From assembly GCF_011745365.1 (NCBI RefSeq), contig NW_024468909.1, positions 868,001 through 932,000 of the forward strand: 64,000 nt of DNA, read 5' to 3'. This DNA is from Cryphonectria parasitica EP155. Its lineage: Eukaryota > Ascomycota > Sordariomycetes > Diaporthales > Cryphonectriaceae. The notes below the pieces were generated by a model, which was given only the letters and a program-made list of their open reading frames with translations, was not told the DNA's origin and ran no database searches. A program made the position numbers and the translations under genes. Position 1 is the first letter of the stretch. Each line of letters starts with the position of its first letter. This document shows positions 1-43,823 of the stretch, piece by piece.

Positions 1-346
1 TGGCTTCAGTTCAGCCTGCGGGCCCGGTACATATGCCGGGCGCTGGTCTCCCCAGCTTGCCCTCCAATCTGACCCAGCAGCAGGTCAAAGATGTCTACCA
101 GGTATGCTCGCCAATGCGGCTCCCCTGCGCGTTCGCCCTCTGAAGTCTGGCTCGGCATGCTGACACACTGTAGAAATTCCAAGAGATGAAAAAGAACAAC
201 ACGCCTACGACCGATCCCGAGTTCATCAAAACATCAAATTTCCTGGCGAGCTTTCAGCAACATCAGCGCATGCGGGCGAAACAGCTTGAGTACCAGAAGA
301 TGCAGCAGTCCCAGCAGCAGCAGCATCAGCAACAACAGCAGCATCA

Positions 347-391
<45 letters not shown>

Positions 392-3300
392 ACACCAACA
401 GCAACAGCAGCAGCAGGGCGCCGTTGCTAACGGTGCTATAACAGATGGTCAAATAGGTGCCAACGGCGTGCAGCCGGGTCCACAGGCCTCGCCGTCTTCA
501 ACCTCCCTTGGGGCTTCAGCTCTTCCCGCCGCGTCTGGAGACGCTTCAAATGCGGCTGCCTCGTCAACTTCAAGTGCTGGCACGGGCCAGTTCACGCAGG
601 CACACCTTACTCTACTTAGGCAGCAGATCGCGGCCTTCAAGTACCTGAGCAGAAACTTTGGAGTACCCGCACAGATGCAAAATGCCCTTTTTGCACACCG
701 ACAGCGGCGCCAGGCTTTGGTCGCGCAGCAAATATCTCAACCGTCGTCGACCCCGACCACACAACAAACGCCAGGCAAGGCTGGTCCGAGTGGATCGGAG
801 CCGCCAAAGCCCGAAGAAGCCGCTCAGAAGCCTCCTGCGCATGAGTTCAAGACGCTGAAACGGCCTGATACGATGCTGGCGGATACCGTCAGCTTCTTCA
901 AGCATGCACGGCGGGACCAGCGGCTGTTCATTCCTGGCCTCTTCCCGCCGGGTGTTGATTTTGACCAGCTGAGGGCGGACCGGGAGAAGATCATGTTCAG
1001 CAGGATGAGTGCCCGGTTCCACGAGTTGAAAAATCAACCAAGCAACCTGGCACACTGGGACACCTCCGAGGATAGCCTCGAGGTTGATGACAGCCTCAGG
1101 CGGAAGGCCATCATCGAGATGAAATCAATCGCGTTGTACTCCAAGCAGAGGAGACTGCGTGAGCTGATTGGGCGGCAGATGATGCAGTACGACAACCTCG
1201 CGACCACGACAAACCGCAGCCAGTACCGCAGGCTCAAGAAGCAGAGTGTGCGTGAGGCTCGCATCACCGAGAAGCTGGAGAAGCAGCAGCGTGACGCAAG
1301 GGAGAACCGTGAGAAGAAGAAGCACTCTGACTTCCTGCACGCCGTGTTCAACCACAGGCATGAGATCCTGTCGACCGGCGCCAGCCAGCAGAATAAGATG
1401 GGCAAAATGGGCAAGCTCATGTACAACCACCACTTCAACATCGAGAAGGAAGAGCAGAAACGTATTGAGCGGAATGCCAAGCAGCGTCTGCAGGCTCTCA
1501 AGGCCAACGACGAGGAGGCATATCTCAAGCTGCTCGACCAGGCCAAGGATACGCGTATCACTCACCTGCTCAAGCAGACAGACGGCTTCTTGGGGCAGCT
1601 CGCCTCGTCCGTCAAGGCCCAGCAACGGTCTGCCGCAGAGCGTTACGGCGACGAGTCCGGCGAATTCCTCAACGAGGAGGAGAGCGAAGACGAGGAAGAG
1701 GAAGAGGAGAACAGAGGCAAGATCGATTACTATGCTGTTGCTCATCGCATCAAGGAAGAAGTGACCGAACAGGCTAGCATCCTGGTGGGTGGTCGGCTCA
1801 AGGAGTACCAGGTCAAGGGTCTGCAGTGGATGATATCACTGTACAACAACAACCTGAACGGTATTCTTGCAGACGAAATGGGTCTCGGCAAGACGATCCA
1901 GACCATCAGCTTGGTCACCTACCTGATCGAAAAGAAGCAGCAGCTCGGTCCTTACCTCGTTATCGTCCCGCTCAGTACGTTGACGAACTGGAATCTCGAG
2001 TTCGACAAGTGGGCTCCGACGGTCAGTAAGGTGGTGTACAAGGGGCCGCCCAATACTCGAAAGTTGCAGCAGGATAAGATCCGCCAGGGGAGATTTCAGG
2101 TTCTGCTCACCACCTACGAATACATCATCAAGGATCGCAACATTCTTAGCAAGATCAAGTGGTTCCACATGATTATCGACGAAGGTCACCGCATGAAGAA
2201 CGCCAACTCGAAGCTCAGCGCAACCATCCAGCAATACTACTCGACCCGTTTCCGTCTCATCCTCACGGGAACTCCTCTCCAGAACAACTTGGCAGAACTC
2301 TGGGCCATGCTCAACTTCACACTACCAAACATCTTTAAGTCAGCCAAGACTTTCGACGAGTGGTTCAACACTCCCTTTGCCAACACTGGAAGCCAAGACA
2401 AGATGGAGCTGACAGAAGAAGAGCAAATCCTTGTCATTCGACGTCTGCACAAGGTTCTGCGCCCCTTCCTGCTCCGTCGTCTGAAGAAGGACGTGGAGAA
2501 GGACCTGCCTGACAAGACCGAGAAGGTCGTCAAGTGCAAGTTCTCTGCCCTGCAAGCTCGCTTGTACAAGCAGATGTTCTTCCACAACAAGTTCGCTGTC
2601 AGCGATGGTAAGGGTGGCAAGACGACAGCAAAGGGTCTGAGCAACATGATGATGCAGCTCCGGAAGCTCTGCAACCACCCGTTCGTCTTTGATGAGGTCG
2701 AGAACCAGATGAATCCGGCCAATACATCCAACGATCTGCTGTGGAGGACTTGCGGCAAGTTCGAGCTGCTTGATCGTATCCTGCCAAAGTACCAAGCCAC
2801 AGGCCATCGTGTTCTCATGTTCTTCCAGATGACGGCCATCATGGATATCATGGAGGATTTCCTTCGGCTGCGAAACATTCAGTTCCTCCGCCTCGACGGT
2901 ACGACCAAGTCGGACGAGCGTAGTGATCTGCTTTATGAGTTCAACCGGCCCGACTCGCCATACTTCATGTTCCTGCTCTCGACTCGTGCCGGTGGTCTTG
3001 GTCTCAACCTCCAGACTGCTGATACTGTCATTATCTATGATTCCGATTGGAACCCTCATCAGGATTTGCAGGCTCAGGATCGTGCGCATCGTATTGGGCA
3101 AAAGAACGAGGTCCGCATCCTGCGTCTGATCAGCTCGAACTCTGTTGAGGAGAAGATCCTGGAGCGAGCTAGGTACAAACTCGACATGGACGGCAAGGTT
3201 ATCCAGGCAGGTCGTTTCGATCACAAGTCTTCCGAGACTGAACGTGATGCCATGCTCCGGACGTTGCTTGAATCTGCAGACCTCGCCGAGGCTGGCGAGC

Positions 3301-4535
3301 AGGAGGAGATGGACGACGAGGAGCTGAACATGATCCTCGCGCGTAATGATGACGAGCTCGTGACCTTCCAGAAGCTTGACGAGGAAAGATCAAAGGACCT
3401 CACCTACGGAAATGTGCCGGGGTCCAAGAAAGTTCCCCGCCTTATGACGGAAGACGAACTGCCGGACATTTACCTCAACGAGGACAATCCAGAGCAGCCG
3501 GAAGAGACGGACACAATCCTCGGACGCGGTGCCCGTGAAAGGACGAAGGTGCGGTATGATGATGGCCTGACTGAAGAGCAATGGCTTATGGCTGTCGATG
3601 ATGATGATGACTCGCCCGAGGCAGCGGCTGCTAGGAAACAAGCCCGCAAGGACAAACGGGAGCAGAACAGGATGAAGAAGATCGGTGTGCTGAACGGTTC
3701 CGAAGGTTCTCCTGCGGCCAGCAGAGCTAGCAGCGAAGAGCCTCCAGAGACACCCGCTAAGAAACGTGGCCGCAAGTCCGGCGGCAAGAATGAGAAGAGG
3801 AAGGCGGAGGAAGGCGACGATGAGCCTCCGCCAAAGAAGCGCCGGGGTCCGCAAGGTCGAGTCAAGGCCGTTGCTGCGGCCAGCGGGGAGCAGAAGATGA
3901 GCCTTGAACAGCGTGCGCTGCTGCAAAGAAGCCTGCGCTCTCTCTTTGACAAATTGATGAACCTGGAGGTAGACGACCCTGACCCGGAGCCGGAGGAGGA
4001 CGATAAGGACGACGACGACGAGCCTCCGAAGCGTCTGATCATTGGGCCGTTTATCAAACTGCCTCCTAAGAGAGACTATGCCGACTACTACGTCGTCATC
4101 CAGAGTCCTATCTGCATGAACCACATTGAGAAGAAGATCAAGAAGGAGGAATACAACAGCCTCAGCGACATGCGCAAGGACATCGAGCTCATGTGTAACA
4201 ACTGCAGAACCTACAACGATGACAGTGCACTGATCCACATGGACGCCACAACCATTCAGGTGAGTTTTGAGCATGAAGCCATGGGGCGCCTTGGACGAAC
4301 TGGGCTTGACTAACGCTCTCGATAGAACTTCTTCACGAAAGAGTATGAGCAGCTGCTACAGGACAACCAGGATTTGAATGAGCTGGAGGATTCGTCGTCG
4401 CAGAAGGAGACATCTGCACCGCCCACGACGAGTGCGGGCACTCCACAGCCCCGCATCAGGCTGATCAACAACTCAGCCAACAACACCAATGGCGCGGCAA
4501 GCAGCGCTGCTCGTAGCGAGGACGGCGATGACTAG
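1..4535 (+). CDS. snf2: SNF2-type ATP-dependent chromatin remodelling helicase, 5' end outside window
   Basis: ATPase motor of a SWI/SNF or RSC type complex, acting on nucleosomes in the nucleus. Exons are 1-101 (partial), 174-4259 and 4326-4535, joined by GT-AG introns in frame; 1465 codons including the stop are present. Domains in order: a QLQ motif (about nt 585-665, FTQAHLTLLRQQ), a basic HSA-like helical region (nt 1100-1500), and an acidic stretch before the motor. The SNF2 ATPase shows a Walker A box (ILADEMGLGKT, nt 1863-1895), a DEGH box (near nt 2180) and the helicase C-terminal motif RAHRIGQ (near nt 3085). Then come an SnAC-like segment, an AT-hook-like KKRGRKSGGK (near nt 3760) and a C-terminal bromodomain (nt 3900-4350). 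A long polyglutamine tract lies at nt 305-415. The domain order fits yeast Snf2/Sth1 and S. pombe Snf21/22; which paralogue it is cannot be decided without the missing N-terminus. Confidence 0.95.
303..416 (+). repeat. CAG/CAA/CAC repeat coding polyglutamine in the SNF2 gene
   Basis: A run of CAG and CAA codons interrupted by CAT or CAC (His) encodes about 35 glutamines near the N-terminal side of the SNF2-type protein. Length polymorphism between strains is likely, because the core CAG stretch is uninterrupted for about 14 codons. Confidence 0.9.
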
Positions 4536-32927: not shown

Positions 32928-33607
32928 TCACAGCGCAGGCCTCGCCTGCACACCGCCCTCCTTGCCGAGGGCGTCTCCAATCCTGTCTGCAGTGCTGCCG
33001 TCCGCGCCGCCGGCGGTGAGAAGATCTTGACCCTGCTCGCGCTGGCGCATCTCCTGCTCCATGGCGATCATCTGCTGCTCCTCTGCCCAGCACAGGGCGA
33101 AGGGGACACCGATCAGCAGGGCGGAGACGGAGATGGACCACATGGAGCGACCGGCGAAGAAAAGGACGCCGGTAATGACGCGGCGGGTAGTCTGGTACTT
33201 TCCGTAGAACCAGGAGCGGGTGGTTGGGGGGATGATGTCGCGGAGGGCTAAGAGGCGGTCCGCGAGGGTCTCGGCGGTAGGGTCGAAGTCTGAGTCGTTG
33301 GAGATCTCGGAGTCTGTGAGGAGAAGGGAGGGAGAATCGTTAGCAAATTGGTGGCTAGACCAAATGATTGAGACAGAGAGCTGGCAGCGTGGTGGTAAGA
33401 CCAAGGGTGAAGGTGAGGGTGAAGCTGCGACTGATGCTGAAGGGTGCATCTCGAAATTTTGCAATTGCGTCACTACGACGCAGGTGAAACTGCAGAAGAA
33501 CAGCCGCGGGAGTGCTCACCAGTGTCGGTGTAATCGCCATCCTCCTCCTCAGGGCCAGGCTGGCGCTTCTGGAACTCCTCATCCTCAACCTCGACAAGCT
33601 GGACCAT
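32928..33607 (-). CDS. tom22: Mitochondrial import receptor subunit Tom22
   Basis: Central receptor and organiser of the TOM complex in the mitochondrial outer membrane. Exons 33607-33520 and 33313-32928 join in frame to 157 residues, starting MVQLVEVEDEEF. The cytosolic N-terminus is strongly acidic (EEEDGDYTDTDSEISNDSDFD), as needed for presequence binding. It is followed by LADRLLALRDIIPPTTRSWFYGKY and a single C-terminal transmembrane segment (SMWSISVSALLIGVPFALCWA), and then a short intermembrane-space tail rich in Gln/Glu. Length and order match Neurospora Tom22. The start codon chosen is the one aligned with known Tom22 N-termini; an in-frame open stretch continues 114 codons upstream to an ATG at 33949 (listed separately). 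Tail-proximal Pro and TM are intact. Confidence 0.94.
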
Positions 33608-33949: not shown

Positions 33950-35126
33950 GGTAGGTGCAAAGTTGGTGTAAAATGATTGGCAGATTCAGAGGTGGTCTGT
34001 GCGGTCCAGACTTGGTGACGACTTCCAATTAATGAGAAGAGGCACATGGAAGGAGCAGATGATGGCTACATTCTTGTGTTAGATACTCTACAAGTTAAGT
34101 TGAGGTATTCAATCGGGATCATAATATATCTCCTTGTGGTTCGGTTTGTTTATTCCTCTAAGGTCAATCACTGGATCCCAAAAAAGAGTCCACCAAGGCA
34201 AGGTCTGCACCAGCCTCAGATGAGCTGGCTGCCCTCGAATGATGCTTGTACTTCTGGTCACTGCTGATCAACATGACACTACTCTCTCAGGGTGCATATA
34301 ACTATGACTATGATAGAAAAACACAATCAAACCTCAGTAGGTGTTTCCCTAGAACATCTGCTTGAGGAACTTGGCGGCTGGCTATATAGAGAACAATTTC
34401 CTCACAGCGAAACAACCATCTCAAAACAATCATTATTCAGCAACAAACCTTCATGCCCACCTCAAGAGGGCATGTTCTCCAGCTTTGAAAGACTCCTTTT
34501 GTGATCCTTTATACCTCACAATAATGGGGTATACTCGAGTCTTTTTTTCACGATTACACAGTTCCATGTTCTCATCGAGATCGGTGGATTCTTCAAGACA
34601 TATCAAACGTTATCATAACTTGAATCTAGCTTGCGTCCGTCTTCCTTCGAAGCTCACTCTAGACACGCAACAGTCATTTTCCTAGCGTCATCCAAAGTAC
34701 CAAACATTGATCGGTCTGGATGTGTGTTAAGTAACGATCCGAAACTCAGCCTTGCAAGGAGAGTTCAGAGCTGCTATGCTTAATTCACAGCTGGGACAGA
34801 CAGCCATGAGATGAACTCTCAAATCCAGGCAAACTGACCTCAAGAAACCTGATGCAAATTCCCGAACCTCGGACTTCTGGGAGACACACGAAATTCGAAG
34901 GAGGGTTTAATTTTTCCAGAGTTGCTTTTAGCTTCTCTCGTATTACGTTGATCACACTTGCTCAAGCCACACTATCGATCTCATGCGCACGTACTTTGTA
35001 TAAATTTGCAGACTATTCATTGACATGTTCCCCCCGCGCATCTTATCTGATGTAATGTGCATCTGTAGCACCTGACATATCGGCCATACTATTTCGAGAC
35101 TGCCACACCTCGATACAAGGAATCTC
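33950..35126. other. AT-richer spacer, no recognised gene
   Basis: Visibly AT-richer than the flanking genes, with short frames only. Nothing resembling a transposase or a degraded known gene was identified by eye. Confidence 0.55.
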
Positions 35127-36302
35127 TTAGTTGCCCTTGTTCTTCTTGCCCTGGTGGTGGGGCTCACGAGCCTCAATTTCCTCGACGTCACGACCATTGT
35201 TCTTCTTGCCCTTGCCCTGGTGATGGGGCTCACGGGCCTCGAGATCCTCGACATCACGGCCGTTGTTCTTCTTGCCCTTGCCCTGGTGGTGAGGCTCGCG
35301 GGCCTCGAGGTCCTCAACGTCACGACCATTGTTCTTCTTTCCCTTGCCCTGGTGGTGGGGCTCACGAGCCTCAATTTCCTCGACGTCACGACCATTGTTC
35401 TTCTTGCCCTTGCCCTGGTGGTGAGGCTCGCGGGCCTCGAGATCCTCGACATCACGGCCGTTGTTCTTCTTGCCCTTTCCTTGGTGATGGGGCTCGCGGG
35501 CCTCGAGGTCCTCAACGTCACGACCATTGTTCTTCTTTCCCTTGCCCTGGTGATGGGGCTCACGAGCCTCAAGCTCCTCGATATCGCGGCCGTTGTTCTT
35601 CTTGCCCTTTCCTTGGTGGTGGGGCTCACGAGCCTCAACATCACGATCCTCAAGGTCAACCTCCTCTTCCTCCTCGTCATCAACATCGCGACCATTGTTC
35701 TTCTTGCCCTTGCCTTGGTGGTGGGGCTCCCGAGCCTCGATCTCCTCAACATCACGGCCGTTGTTCTTCTTGCCCTTGCCCTGATGGTGGGGCTCACGAG
35801 CCTCAACATCACGGTCCTCAAGGTCAACCTCCTCTTCCTCCTCGTCATCAACATCGCGACCATTGTTCTTCTTGCCCTTGCCTTGGTGGTGGGGCTCCCG
35901 AGCCTCGATCTCCTCAACATCACGGCCGTTGTTCTTCTTGCCCTTGCCCTGATGGTGGGGCTCACGAGCCTCGACATCACGGTCCTCAAGGTCAACTTCC
36001 TCCTCCTCTTCATCGACGTCACGGCCGTTGTTCTTCTTGCCCTTGCCCTGGTGGTGAGGCTCGCGGGCCTCGAGGTCCTCGATATCACGACCGTTATTCT
36101 TCTTGCCCTTTCCTTGGTGATGGGGCTCGCGGACATCCACATTGACGGGCACAGCCAGCGCGGGACCGGCCAGAGCAGCCATCAGGGCGACGCTGCGGCG
36201 CGACAGGGCCACGGAGGTGCTGGGAGCGCTGAGCTCAAAACCAGCGGCGGTCGAGGCCGCAAGGCCCGAGACGAGCAGGCTGAGGACTGAAGGAGCGTGC
36301 AT
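35127..36302 (-). CDS. Secreted tandem-repeat precursor, candidate Kex2-processed (RiPP-like) peptide
   Basis: Single-exon gene of 391 residues. Residues 1-20 form a signal peptide (MHAPSVLSLLVSGLAASTAA). A 37-residue pro-like segment follows, with a dibasic SRR at 34-36 and a second Ala/Leu-rich stretch. Residues 58-391 are 14 tandem units. Thirteen contain the identical 16-mer REPHHQGKGKKNNGRD; the last is shortened (REPHHQGKKNKGN) and ends the protein. Units are 22 residues with linkers VEEIEA, VEDLEA, IEDLEA or IEELEA; units 2, 4 and 6 carry a longer acidic linker (VDDEEEEEVDLEDRDVEA or a one-residue shorter form). The architecture (signal peptide plus near-identical repeats with dibasic sites) is that of fungal KEP/dikaritin precursors, and a UstYa-family gene lies divergently at 38559. 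Unlike known dikaritin cores, the repeat lacks Tyr, Phe, Trp and Cys, and its only dibasic site is KK. Alternative: a secreted, His-rich metal-binding or wall protein. Confidence 0.75.
   Translation of the reverse strand: MHAPSVLSLLVSGLAASTAAGFELSAPSTSVALSRRSVALMAALAGPALAVPVNVDVREPHHQGKGKKNNGRDIEDLEAREPHHQGKGKKNNGRDVDEEEEEVDLEDRDVEAREPHHQGKGKKNNGRDVEEIEAREPHHQGKGKKNNGRDVDDEEEEEVDLEDRDVEAREPHHQGKGKKNNGRDVEEIEAREPHHQGKGKKNNGRDVDDEEEEEVDLEDRDVEAREPHHQGKGKKNNGRDIEELEAREPHHQGKGKKNNGRDVEDLEAREPHHQGKGKKNNGRDVEDLEAREPHHQGKGKKNNGRDVEEIEAREPHHQGKGKKNNGRDVEDLEAREPHHQGKGKKNNGRDVEDLEAREPHHQGKGKKNNGRDVEEIEAREPHHQGKKNKGN
35130..36131 (-). repeat. Coding minisatellite, 14 units of 66-102 bp
   Basis: Tandem in-frame units encode the REPHHQGKGKKNNGRD block. 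Eleven standard units are 66 bp or partial, and three are 99-102 bp with an inserted acidic linker. Near-identity at DNA level implies recent expansion or concerted evolution. Because the unit is a multiple of three without stops, the opposite strand is also open through the array. Confidence 0.95.
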
Positions 36303-38558
36303 CTTGTCGGTTGTGTGTATAAGTAGCGATTGGATGCGCTAAGTTGAAATAGGTATGAAAAAATCACTGGCCGGCCAGGTGAAAGGTGAATGAGTGGATT
36401 AGGTGGAGACGAAAGGGGACAACCCAGGCTAAGATGAGAAGAGAAGAGAAAGGGAGAAGGAAAAAAAAAGTGCTCAGCTGATTAGGGATGGAATGTGGCG
36501 TGAGCATGTTTGGGAGATGAGAGCGTTTTTGCCTTTATATACGATACTTGCCTCCTTACACGTACGAGATGTTCTTCAGTCATTCGCCCGGGTGAAGACG
36601 ACGGCCCCTCCGGGGAGAAGGGGGTTCGCAAGCTGCGAACAGCCACGTCTAGCCATGGTCATGCGAGACGGGACGATGACGAGACCAAGTTCGTGGAAAC
36701 TGTGTTGCGACTTGGGCATAATTTGGGACGATAGAGGGAAGACCAGGCCCTGCTCGCACAAGTGGATTCCGTCTGAGAATCGGTCTCATCGTTCATCCTG
36801 GGGCAAATCTGGTTCACCGTGTGCGGCCTCTGAGCCCAAAGATCCATGGGTTGGCATTGCTTTGGCAGTGATGGGACAAGGCTGAGACTGAGCTTAAGAG
36901 AGGCGGGACGAGACGTTCTGGGTGTGAGATGAGAGTTTGGTATGGTCTCGAAGAGAGCCAGGGACTACCTGCCCTCACAAGGCTGGTGGCTAATAAGACA
37001 CAGATCTTGCGAATCTGAGGGCGAAGGACGAACAGATGTTCCCCAGACACTCTGAACAAGCCCTAGAGGCGGGTCCCCGGCGATTTATCCCCGTACATAT
37101 GCCGTTTTTTCCGATTATACTTCCGATACTGACCTGAAAGTTTCGATTAGCAGCGTGACTCTGTACGTACTCAAAGCTGAGAGGAGATGAATAGATGAGG
37201 CCTCAGCTGGTGCAGCTGAGGGTGGTCTTGAAAATCAGAGCGTGATGTCAAGGAAGGTGACAAAGTGGCCCACTCAGATGCTGTGTCTCTCATTCTCTGG
37301 TTGATAGCCGAATATATCCATTAAGCATACTTAATGGGATCAACTTTGGATGCAAAATGGCATGGCATCGCGTAAATCATAATCGCCGATCCTTAACACA
37401 TAAGCCAGGCCTGCAAGGTTGAGGATAGAATACACATGACTATGGATGTCGCTGCGCCAGGATGAGGCTCAAAAGGCGTTGAAACTCGACGCGATTTGTC
37501 GTCGCAATGTTCATTTTTCCGAGACAAGTCGTTGTCGAGGCTAAAAGTGCTCTCGTTTGGCTGGTCATTGCCATGACAAGGGAAAAAATTGGAGCAGTTT
37601 GAACCCTGTAAATATTCTCCAGTATAGGCAGTAGCAACCATGCTCGTTGTGAAGCGTTTAGCCGGGCGCTATTCCTGGTTCGCCAAGATGAAACGCTCAT
37701 ACCTTCCCCAAGCTCGTGACGGACAACAACCGACCAAGACTCTGAGATGCGACAGCAATGGCTCACAGAATGATACTGGAATTTTTATTATATAATCAGG
37801 CTGAGGGGCCAATTGACACACCAATTCTATGTTTTGATACGGCAAAAAATGGCGAGTCATAATCGTAACAGAAATATTCATCGAAGCCCACGAGAGAGAC
37901 AGGAACGGCCCGGCTGATCGTGGACGAATTACTACTCTGGTTCACTCGAAACACCGTCGACGCCAAGCGACACGCCTCAGAAGAGCAACTCCTGAATCCG
38001 CTTCTCCCCACCGCGTCTCTTCAAACACACCCTAGCCTGCGAGGTGTCTCATGAGTCGCTCTGCTTGCATCATCAGACGTCTCGTACCGAATAGCCACTT
38101 GTCTCACACAGGTTTGTGTAAACAGTTTGCTTCTCTTCTGCTTCTCTCTCTCTCTTTCATCCTAATTCGCCTCACTTTCCTTCTCTTTCTCTCCCTTTAC
38201 TCTATTTCGCAAGGGCTGGTTCCTGGTAAAACGTTGATCACACTGCACCAAGCTCTGGTTATTCCTGCTTCCACGATCTTCTGGGAATCATTTCAGATCA
38301 CAAAGGCTTGGCTCAGTTGATCTGGCTTTGAGACGATCACGAGGCAACTCTATTCACGGAACGACAGTTCCGGCTACGAAGACTACTCAGTCGTCTGTGT
38401 TGCTCTATTCACCTCCAGTCTCCGGCTGCTTTGTCTTCCTTCTTCCATCTAGCTCACTTTCATTCTTCTCACTACACCTGGCGTGTGTTTCTTTTCAAAT
38501 CATACAGTCTGTGACTGCAACCAAACCCCTTTTGGATACCATATTCCAATTCATCATC
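36303..38558. other. 2.26-kb divergent intergenic region between repeat precursor and UstYa-like gene
   Basis: Shared upstream sequence of two head-to-head genes. No intervening gene was recognised. The last 500 bp before 38559 are pyrimidine-rich leader; short frames at 36493-36885 and 38051-38320 have no recognisable family. Confidence 0.6.
36367..36378. promoter_or_regulatory. 12-bp perfect palindrome upstream of the repeat precursor
   Basis: CTGGCCGGCCAG is a perfect inverted repeat 65 bp before the precursor start codon. It contains CCGG-centred half-sites of the kind bound by Zn2Cys6 regulators. A CCAAT motif lies between it and the ATG on the gene's strand. Regulatory function is inferred from position only. 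Confidence 0.35.
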
Positions 38559-39670
38559 ATGCCTAGGAAAGCCTACCGTCCCCTCGCCGCCGACGAGGAA
38601 CAGAGCCGGAGCAGCTCAGACACGTTCTGCGAGAAGGAGCCGCTACGAGTGAGGTTCGAAGATGACAAGTTCGAGCGAGATGTCAGGACGAGGATGCTCG
38701 ACTTTCTCTTCAGGAACTGGGCTTGGATCGCACATACCATACTGTTGTCGATATCATTGATCCTTTTCACCATTTCTTTTTGCCAGAGGACGGCGAGGAT
38801 ATCGGATCTGGCAGTCACACAACAATACGCGTCATACTGTACGTCATTTCCGATCTCATCCCGTGTGCGGACAAGAGAGAAGCAGAGAGTTTGCATCTGA
38901 CAACGAGTACAGCACCGGTGGCGCCCATCGTCAAGTATGAGACCGTACGGTACAATCTCACACCGCTGGTGGAGGGACCCTTTGTCGGCTTTGGACCCAA
39001 AGTGGACGAGGCATGGGATTCTATTGCCAACGACAGTATGTTTTGCTTGTTCTTTTCCCATTGAGCGTGGTGTACGGCCTGCAGGCGAAGTTACACACAG
39101 CAAGTACTGACGAGGTGGTTACTGTATAGTGGGCGATCAGATGATCTCCGAAGAAGAGCTGAACAGGCTTGGCCTCCCAAAGAACTCGCTGAAGGTCAAG
39201 GACCCGGCGACGGGCGTGGTCGGCTACCGCGCCGCAGTCGAGGTGTTCCACCAGCTGCACTGCCTGAACCTCCTACGGCAGTACATCTACAAGGACTATT
39301 ATATCAACATTTACAGCGATATCCAGGAGGAGGAGGAGGGTTTGAAGGGCCACGTCGGTATGTTTAACACGAGGGGTATTCCCCATATAGAACATAAACA
39401 CACATCCAAACTGCATCCTTTCTCAGATGGTATTATCTCAGACCAACTTCGCTGACACATATTCATCAAGACCACTGCCTGGAGGCGATTCGGATCAACC
39501 TCATGTGCACAGCCGACATTGGCATCTTCACGTTCAGGGAGTATCCGGAGTACGGGTACGAGAAGGACGATTTCTGGCCGGACTTTAGTACGCTGCACAC
39601 ATGCAGAAACTTCGATACCATTCACCAGTGGGCCATCGACCACACCGTCTCGTGGACTCACGATGTGTGA
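38559..39670 (+). CDS. UstYa-family (DUF3328) oxidase-like membrane protein
   Basis: Family members install oxidative ring closures or hydroxylations in fungal cyclic peptides (ustiloxin, phomopsin, asperipin, cyclochlorotine). Four exons join in frame to 276 residues: 38559-38838, 38913-39035, 39130-39357 and 39471-39670. A polar N-terminus (to about residue 52) precedes one transmembrane helix (residues 53-75, NWAWIAHTILLSISLILF), typical of UstYa proteins. The luminal part contains YSPVAPIVKYETVRYNL-type strand sequence. Both diagnostic HxxHC motifs follow: HQLHC (175-179) and HVDHC (209-213), the second rebuilt across the last intron as HVDHCLEAIR. The ending TCRNFDTIHQWAIDHTV is also family-like. 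All catalytic-motif residues are intact. The nearest upstream gene is the divergent repeat precursor at 35127-36302. UstYa genes also occur with NRPS genes; none is visible in this window. Confidence 0.92.
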
Positions 39671-42701: not shown

Positions 42702-43823
42702 ATGGATGTCGTCCTCGAGGTGCTCGACACCTTTGGTGTCGACTACATCTATGCAACCCTCTACCCGGCGCATCCCGCCTCGTACAACTTCCAGAACCCC
42801 CCGGCAAACCAGTCAATTGACCAGCAGGTCTTCTCAACATGGGTCTACAAACCATCTACCGAATACTTTTCCCTCGAGCCTTCAAAATATGCCTACATGA
42901 GCGCATGGCCCCGCGATAACATCTTCCGCCAGGCCTTGTCGCTGTTCTTCATCGTCTGGTAAGTGTCCGCCGTGTCGTACGCCCCCGAGTGCGATCTTGA
43001 CAAATCTTAACTAACATGACATCTCTGGGCTAGGTTATTTGGCTTCCTGTTGTACTTCGCCTTCGCCTCGCTGTCATATTGCTTCGTCTTCGACAAGAAG
43101 ACCATGGAGCACCCCAAATACCTCCGCAACCAGATCGGCCTCGAGATCAAGCAGACCTTGGCCGCCCTTCCCGGCATGTCTGTCTGCACGACGGTCATGA
43201 TGCTTCTCGAGGTGCGCGGGTACTGCAAGCTGTACGATGTGTTCGAGGACGCGCCCTTCCCCGGCTACAACTGGATCCAGTATCCATTCTTCATCATGTT
43301 CACCGACTTCTGCATCTACTGGATCCATCGCTGGCTGCACCACCCGCTCATCTACAAGCGTCTTCACAAGCCGCATCACAAGTGGATCATGCCGACCCCC
43401 TTCGCCTCCCATGCCTTCCACCCCCTCGATGGCTTTGCCCAGTCCCTACCCTACCACATCTTCCCCCTCATCTTCCCCCTGCAGAAGGTCGCCTTCCTCC
43501 TGCTCTTCGTCATCGTCAACATTTGGACCATTCTGATCCACGACGGCGAGTTTGTCTCGGATAACCCCGTCATCAACGGCGCGGCCTGCCACAGCATTCA
43601 CCACCTCGCCTTTAACTACAACTACGGTCAGTACACCACTCTCTGGGATAGACTGGGCGGTAGCTACCGCAAGCCCGACCGCGCCATGTTCGACAAGGAG
43701 AAGAACATGTCCAAGGAGCAGTGGGAGAAGCAGAGCAGGGAGATGGAGAAGATTGTCAAGGTGGTTGAGGGCGAGGACGACAGGTCCTACGAGCCCAAGA
43801 TCGAGAACAAGAAGACGAGGTAG
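42702..43823 (+). CDS. erg3: C-5 sterol desaturase (ergosterol biosynthesis)
   Basis: Introduces the C5-C6 double bond of episterol in the ER membrane, a late step of ergosterol synthesis. Exons 42702-42958 and 43034-43823 join in frame (W split across the intron) to 348 residues. The fatty-acid-hydroxylase-type di-iron histidine clusters are all present: HRWLHH, HKPHHK and the C-terminal HSIHH. There are four hydrophobic segments ([64 protein letters not shown]). The start [22 protein letters not shown] and NFQNPP are typical of fungal Erg3. The C-terminal tail is charged and lysine-rich (KIENKKTR), suitable for ER retention. Length equals the family norm. Two Erg3 paralogues often occur in filamentous fungi; which this is cannot be told. 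Confidence 0.96.

What the first reader, a model, noticed from the sequence alone, without database searches (positions are those of the whole stretch)
35127..39670. Head-to-head pair: repeat peptide precursor and UstYa-family oxidase, a candidate minimal RiPP locus
Seen: a signal-peptide protein with 14 tandem near-identical repeats (35127-36302, -) is divergent from an intact UstYa/DUF3328 gene (38559-39670, +) with both HxxHC motifs and an N-terminal TM helix. Nothing recognisable lies in between. Known: in ustiloxin, phomopsin, asperipin and related dikaritin pathways, a Kex2-processed repeat precursor is modified by UstYa-type oxidases encoded next to it. Inferred: these two genes make a modified secreted peptide. 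It is unusual in having only two visible genes (no tyrosinase, P450, methyltransferase or peptidase) and being embedded between housekeeping genes.
Basis: partly seen in the sequence, partly recalled or inferred. Interest (0 to 1): 0.88.

Follow-up and report, generated by a model that had tools for sequence, protein, structure and literature searches.

The report
Di-histidine repeat peptide beside copper oxidase
A fungal gene encodes a secreted-type protein made of 14 copies of a histidine-histidine peptide and sits next to a gene for an oxidase of a family used in peptide toxin pathways; the pair probably makes a small secreted peptide, but one without the tyrosine that the best-known products of this enzyme family rely on.

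Summary
A 391-aa precursor carries 14 repeats (13 identical 15-residue cores, EPHHQGKGKKNNGRD) and lies 2.26 kb, head to head, from an intact four-exon UstYa/DUF3328 gene with both HxxHC motifs, among housekeeping genes. The 13 cores differ at 11 nucleotide sites, all silent (pN 0, pS 0.53): the peptide is under selection.

The RiPP reading is partly supported. A published survey lists two widespread di-His precursor types of which 57 of 64 and 45 of 49 lie within 15 genes of a DUF3328 gene; I could not check that this protein belongs to either. It is not a classical dikaritin: no Tyr, Trp or Cys, and no KR site.

In this protein and six relatives, 49 of 49 HH sites follow Arg plus 0, 1 or 2 X-Pro dipeptides, always in register. 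That predicts Kex2 cleavage at [L/I/V]xxR and Ste13-type trimming to peptides beginning His-His. Best guess: a secreted N-terminal di-His peptide, possibly oxidised by the neighbouring UstYa. Not shown: synteny in relatives, expression, any cleavage or chemical modification.

The parts
35127..36302 (-). repeat peptide precursor, 391 aa, single open frame
   Evidence: silent-only variation in the cores; six relatives
36243..36302 (-). probable signal peptide (about residues 1-20)
   Evidence: hydropathy only
36129..36242 (-). pro-region (residues 21-58) with LSRR and VDVR before the first core
   Evidence: counterpart regions in the relatives' alignment
35130..36128 (-). 14 EPHHQGK units; 13 identical 15-aa cores, spacers ending in [L/I/V]EAR
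36303..38558 (.). 2,256-bp divergent intergenic stretch; no gene recognised by eye
   Evidence: not scanned against Pfam
38559..39670 (+). UstYa/DUF3328 gene, exons 38559-38838, 38913-39035, 39130-39357, 39471-39670; 276 aa
38718..38783 (+). probable transmembrane segment of the UstYa (about residues 54-75)
   Evidence: sequence; helix 42-78 in the model of the C. mali ortholog
39249..39263 (+). first HxxHC motif (HQLHC, residues 175-179)
39351..39478 (+). second HxxHC motif (HVDHC, residues 209-213), split by intron 3
32931..33515 (-). Tom22 ORF, left housekeeping neighbour
   Evidence: PF04281 E 3.2e-38
43020..43820 (+). fatty acid hydroxylase ORF, right neighbour
   Evidence: PF04116 E 2.8e-27

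Best explanation
The two genes form a small peptide-making unit. The precursor enters the secretory pathway; Kex2 cuts after [L/I/V]xxR in front of each repeat; a Ste13-type dipeptidyl aminopeptidase removes the Glu-Pro dipeptide; a Kex1-type carboxypeptidase trims the C-terminal Arg. This yields about 13-14 copies of a peptide that begins His-His-Gln-Gly-Lys, for example HHQGKGKKNNGRDVEDLEA. The UstYa next door, a membrane-bound lumenal dicopper enzyme by analogy with CctR, then oxidises or cross-links a residue of it; with no Tyr, Trp or Cys present the target would be His, Lys or an aliphatic carbon. The product is secreted and acts as a signal or metal-binding peptide. Shown here: gene anatomy, motifs, silent-only core variation, the in-register X-Pro ladder, and Kex2-type and DPPIV-type domains in the genome. 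Inferred: cleavage, trimming, modification, secretion and role.
For: Core kept by selection: pN 0, pS 0.53 over 13 copies, 11 different DNA versions. X-Pro ladder: 49 of 49 HH sites in 7 proteins follow R(XP)0-2, against 318 of 4016 (7.9%) in shuffles; eight linker forms, no out-of-register case. P4 residue is L, I, V or M in 42 of 49 sites, 14 of 14 in the window, as for the extended Kex2 motif (PMC8528282, first of three parts read). One P_proprotein match and one DPPIV_N match in the genome. Intact UstYa with both motifs, kept in 40 of 43 aligned relatives; CctR is a dicopper enzyme that needs those motifs (PMC12435403, parts 1 and 2 of 3 read). Published association of di-His precursor types with DUF3328.
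Against: No synteny could be tested in other fungi. The UstYa line is much wider (171 hits) than the precursors found (6 relatives), although those searches hit their candidate limits. In Umemura's whole set the HH content differs little with and without DUF3328 (5.7% and 3.9%). The gap between the genes is 2.26 kb, not a compact shared promoter. 7 of 49 HH sites (all in the Mytilinidion and Lophium proteins) lack an aliphatic P4. The EAR-EP arrangement also occurs before Phe in P0005, so it is not specific to di-His precursors. Sites within one protein are not independent. No expression, peptide or modification data.
Confidence: 0.5

Rival explanations
1. The precursor is matured only by proteases into linear, unmodified peptides (hormone-, surface- or effector-like), and the UstYa next door acts on something else; their adjacency is accidental or merely ancestral.
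For: Kex2/Ste13 signature like pheromone precursors, which are nearly always without DUF3328 neighbours (PMC7329392, section 9 and passages read). The UstYa line is found in many genera with no di-His precursor found. No Tyr to work on. HH content is similar with and without DUF3328 overall.
Against: Di-His types G-3 and G-8 have DUF3328 nearby in 57 of 64 and 45 of 49 cases. In this genome a repeat precursor was seen at this UstYa locus and at none of 9 others scanned (8 of 18 loci not scanned).
Confidence: 0.35
2. A classical dikaritin-type locus: Kex2 cuts at dibasic sites and UstYa makes a Tyr-based macrocycle, as in ustiloxin or phomopsin.
For: Layout: repeats, hydrophobic N-terminus, adjacent UstYa, one KK in each unit.
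Against: No Tyr in the whole precursor, whereas the described ether bonds are made at Tyr. No KR. No tyrosinase, P450, methyltransferase or peptidase domain in the 20 other window ORFs scanned (smaller or split ORFs were not scanned).
Confidence: 0.03
3. The repeat protein is not cut into peptides; it works whole, as a charged, His-rich secreted or cell-surface protein, for instance binding metal.
For: 61 Glu, 33 Asp, 42 Lys and 29 His of 391 residues; no peptide data.
Against: The in-register Arg-(X-Pro) ladder in front of every HH in seven proteins has no evident use in an uncut protein; the core has pN 0 while the spacers vary (pN 0.09).
Confidence: 0.12

Closest known systems
Kex2-processed repeat protein (KEP) types G-3 and G-8 with DUF3328 neighbours (Umemura 2020, PMC7329392; abstract, sections 6, 7, 9, 13 and passages read)
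   Same: Di-His motif accompanied by Pro, repeats, DUF3328 gene nearby; two relatives of this precursor come from genera in the G-8 list (Colletotrichum, Pseudogymnoascus).
   Different: Membership not checked: the figure logos and the supplement were not available. Diaporthe, Valsa and Cytospora are in neither genus list; Valsa and Cytospora are listed under G-7, which mostly lacks DUF3328 (1 of 50). The N-terminal His-His reading was not seen in the sections read.
Dikaritins (ustiloxin, phomopsin, asperipin-2a)
   Same: Secreted-type repeat precursor next to UstYa-family genes.
   Different: No Tyr, no KR, X-Pro ladder, one UstYa and no other tailoring domain among the ORFs scanned. Asperipin-2a, too, has a single DUF3328 gene.
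Ascomycete alpha-type pheromone precursors
   Same: Kex2-type site followed by X-Pro dipeptides before the core (signature as in PMC6339444).
   Different: No Cys, Trp or Tyr, so neither described pheromone core fits; pheromone precursor genes nearly always lack DUF3328 neighbours.
CctR, dicopper DUF3328 hydroxylase (PMC12435403, parts 1 and 2 of 3 read)
   Same: N-terminal transmembrane helix and two HxxHC motifs lying on two helices (model of the C. mali ortholog).
   Different: CctR hydroxylates a non-ribosomal cyclic peptide; the substrate here is unknown, and metal binding was not tested.

Membership tests
UstYa/DUF3328 (PF11807) | Pfam match over the curated cut-off | tested here: met
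   172 bits against 25
UstYa/DUF3328 (PF11807) | Two HxxHC motifs | tested here: met
   residues 175 and 209
UstYa/DUF3328 (PF11807) | Copper-dependent oxidase activity | not testable with these tools
   known for CctR only by paper
Kex2-processed repeat protein (KEP) | At least 3 repeats of 8 aa or more between KR, KK, RK or RR sites | tested here: met
   one KK in each of 14 units; rule; met through KK only
Kex2-processed repeat protein (KEP) | Signal peptide | tested here: inconclusive
   hydrophobic N-terminus; no predictor run
KEP types G-3/G-8 (Umemura 2020) | Di-His motif accompanied by Pro and DUF3328 within 15 genes | tested here: met
   EPHH units and adjacent UstYa
KEP types G-3/G-8 (Umemura 2020) | BlastP clustering with the type | not testable with these tools
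   supplementary sequence table not available
Dikaritins | Tyr in the core as the cyclisation residue | tested here: not met
   0 Tyr in 391 aa
Dikaritins | Adjacent UstYa-family gene | tested here: met
   38559-39670
Dikaritins | Cyclic product | not testable with these tools
   needs LC-MS
Alpha-type pheromone precursors | Ste13 (XA/XP) signature after the Kex2 site | tested here: met
   but after [LIV]xxR, not after a dibasic site
Alpha-type pheromone precursors | Pheromone core (two Cys, or the Pleosporales PYGxPxG core) | tested here: not met
   no Cys, Tyr or Trp; cores as described

The most novel reading that the evidence does not exclude
A widespread ascomycete RiPP class built on an N-terminal His-His-x-Gly peptide, released by Kex2 at LxxR plus Ste13 trimming, whose histidines are oxidised or cross-linked by a dicopper UstYa; the mature peptide may itself bind copper (a fungal chalkophore or copper-delivery peptide).
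Probability: 0.2. Interest if true: 0.85.

Novelty: new variant of a known kind. Interest (0 to 1): 0.6.

Why it matters
The UstYa-dependent RiPP cyclisations described in the papers read are made at Tyr. A precursor without Tyr, Trp or Cys beside an intact UstYa of a widely kept line implies other chemistry, or no modification at all; either answer is informative. The predicted His-His N-terminus gives exact masses to look for, so a remark in a survey (di-His precursors with DUF3328 neighbours) becomes a directly testable question.

Tried and rejected
Classical dikaritin: rejected on composition. Spurious repeat ORF: rejected, since all core variation is silent in this frame. Recent homogenisation as the cause of identical cores: rejected, since pS is 0.53.

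Control in the same genome: I count 18 UstYa loci and fetched flanks of 10, this one included: about 10 kb on each side for 8 loci and about 4 kb for 2. The first repeat detector (the 8 loci) flagged the window precursor and its overlapping frames, and three ORFs near C6:893 kb: two of low complexity and one of 418 aa whose sequence looks like a protease by eye. The second, looser detector (all ten, with low-complexity ORFs and the window's own locus L046 left out) flagged none. Both miss intron-split or single-core precursors; 8 of 18 loci were not looked at.

Wider search with the precursor alignment gave two new relatives; in both precursor searches only about 8,000 candidates were scored, so others may be hidden. 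P0005 was dropped from the HH counts because it has EAR-EP before Phe and not before HH. The UstYa tree has very long paralog branches, so only the place of the window gene beside Diaporthe and Cytospora is used. No relative of the UstYa was confirmed in viral or prokaryote collections. No solved relative by sequence (best E 0.59) or by fold (none at E 0.001 or below). Motif strings in the open-licence paper library: none. Other literature searches; subscription papers are mostly not held, so absence there says little.

Full report
What is there. The minus-strand ORF 35127-36302 encodes 391 aa with a hydrophobic N-terminus, a short pro-region with LSRR, and 14 EPHHQGK units; 13 share the identical core EPHHQGKGKKNNGRD and the last is truncated. 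Spacers are 7 aa, ending in L/IEAR, or a longer acidic form ending in VEAR. The plus-strand gene 38559-39670 has three introns and encodes a 276-aa UstYa protein. The two start codons are 2,256 bp apart. ORFs around the pair match SNF2, coronin-type WD40, fungal rhodopsin, PP2C, dynamin-type GTPase and Tom22 on the left, and fatty acid hydroxylase, a TRAPP match below its cut-off, adenosine deaminase, FDF/YjeF_N and PIF1 helicase on the right ('coronin' is recalled for the WD40_4 type). None of the 20 ORFs scanned there matches a tyrosinase, P450, methyltransferase or peptidase model; 7 of the 20 match nothing, and shorter or intron-split ORFs were not scanned.

Is it real. Among the 13 cores there are 11 different DNA versions and 11 variable sites, all at third codon positions; pN is 0 and pS 0.53, against pN 0.09 and pS 0.52 in ten 7-codon spacers. 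That is selection on the peptide, not recent copying. The precursor gave one match in the genome.

The enzyme. One search gave 171 relatives (120 listed): Diaporthe 81%, Cytospora 70-78%, Pyricularia 61%, Colletotrichum 47-54%, Fusarium 39-57%, and Leotiomycetes about 38-49% (local identities at differing coverage; class names recalled). Paralogs in the same genome are at 33% or less in alignments of 150 residues or more and 35% over 100; shorter pieces run higher. In a tree of 41 rows the window protein groups with Diaporthe and Cytospora (99/96), then with Pleurostoma and Phaeoacremonium (99/99). This looks like an old, vertically kept line, and the source is probably of Diaporthales. Two HxxHC motifs are in 40 of 43 aligned rows; the misses are P0009 (Cytospora schulzeri), P0095 and P0102. 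The best of five models of the C. mali ortholog has mean pLDDT 80.7 and pTM 0.66 (the other four 65-73), with the motifs falling on helices 172-187 and 201-225; distances between them were not seen. In CctR the same motifs form a dicopper centre facing the organelle lumen, and activity needs O2, copper and these residues (PMC12435403, parts 1 and 2 of 3 read).

The peptide. Six relatives of the precursor were found: Cytospora mali, Colletotrichum incanum, Mytilinidion, Didymella, Lophium and Pseudogymnoascus. In these and the window protein every HH (49 of 49) is preceded by Arg followed by nothing, EP, SP, AP, DP, DPSP, EPAP or SPEP; no out-of-register case occurs; shuffles give 318 of 4016, 7.9%. 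Sites within one protein are not independent, but the ladder length changes between and within proteins while the dipeptide register holds. The residue four places before the cut is L, I, V or M in 42 of 49 (14 of 14 in the window); the 7 exceptions are in the Mytilinidion and Lophium proteins. This fits Kex2 cleavage at LxxR (PMC8528282, first of three parts read) followed by Ste13-type removal of X-Pro (PMC6339444, section 4 read; PMC9769878, passages), leaving His-His-x. HH is followed by Gly two places on in 45 of 49 sites. The genome has one P_proprotein (Kex2-type) and one DPPIV_N match. The window precursor has no Tyr, Trp or Cys; the relatives have no Tyr after their first HH, but some have Cys, Trp or Phe there. 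P0005, a repeat protein without HH, has the same EAR-EP arrangement before Phe, so the processing signature is wider than this family.

Does the pair belong together. Synteny could not be tested: no annotated fungal genomes were available to the tools. In print, Umemura 2020 (PMC7329392) reports that two of the most widespread precursor types, G-3 and G-8, carry a di-His motif accompanied by Pro and have DUF3328 within 15 genes in 57 of 64 and 45 of 49 cases. Among the 120 listed UstYa hits, 7 of 18 G-8 genera and 6 of 20 G-3 genera appear (counted by eye); as this UstYa line is so widespread, that overlap is weak evidence. Against: HH content differs little between precursors with and without DUF3328 (5.7% and 3.9%); the UstYa line is present in genera absent from both lists; Valsa and Cytospora are listed under G-7, of which only 1 of 50 has DUF3328 nearby, though G-7 is not described as di-His. 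In this genome, of 10 UstYa loci looked at (out of 18), only this one showed a repeat precursor; the limits of that scan are in Tried and rejected.

Reading. The most likely account is a Kex2/Ste13-matured di-His peptide with a UstYa oxidation step. In layout it works like a RiPP unit, but it fails the Tyr criterion of dikaritins and shares the processing signature of pheromone precursors. The chemistry, if any, is open. His-containing cross-links are known from BURP-domain, rSAM, P450 and lanthipeptide systems (PMC10206099, passages), so a His-based product is conceivable but unproven.

Noticed in passing
G000 C4:107.8-114.4 kb (L048-L049), C7:2.272-2.278 Mb (L050-L051), C8:2.081-2.086 Mb, C3:2.287-2.292 Mb (L034-L035): Four groups of several UstYa matches close together. 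In the three groups scanned (C4, C7, C3) no repeat precursor was flagged; they may use single-core or intron-split precursors or other substrates.
   Followed up: partly
P0009 and P0008; P0001: The UstYa of Cytospora schulzeri lacks one His in each HxxHC motif and P0008 lacks one in the second, while the Cytospora mali precursor has degenerate repeats (two of its units lost HH). This may be decay of the system in that genus.
   Followed up: no
window 34952-36142 (-) and 35154-36290 (+): Two further long open frames overlap the repeat (396 and 378 aa), the antisense one strongly hydrophobic; by-products of the repeat's composition.
   Followed up: yes
P0005: A metagenomic repeat protein with EAR-EP or EAR-DP before hydrophobic cores such as FLQFLAPLLGKLFG, which suggests that LxxR plus X-Pro processing is used by other fungal precursors too.
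   Followed up: no
window 312-416: A CAG array of 35 units inside the SNF2-type ORF 174-4310 (+), in a Gln-rich stretch.
   Followed up: no
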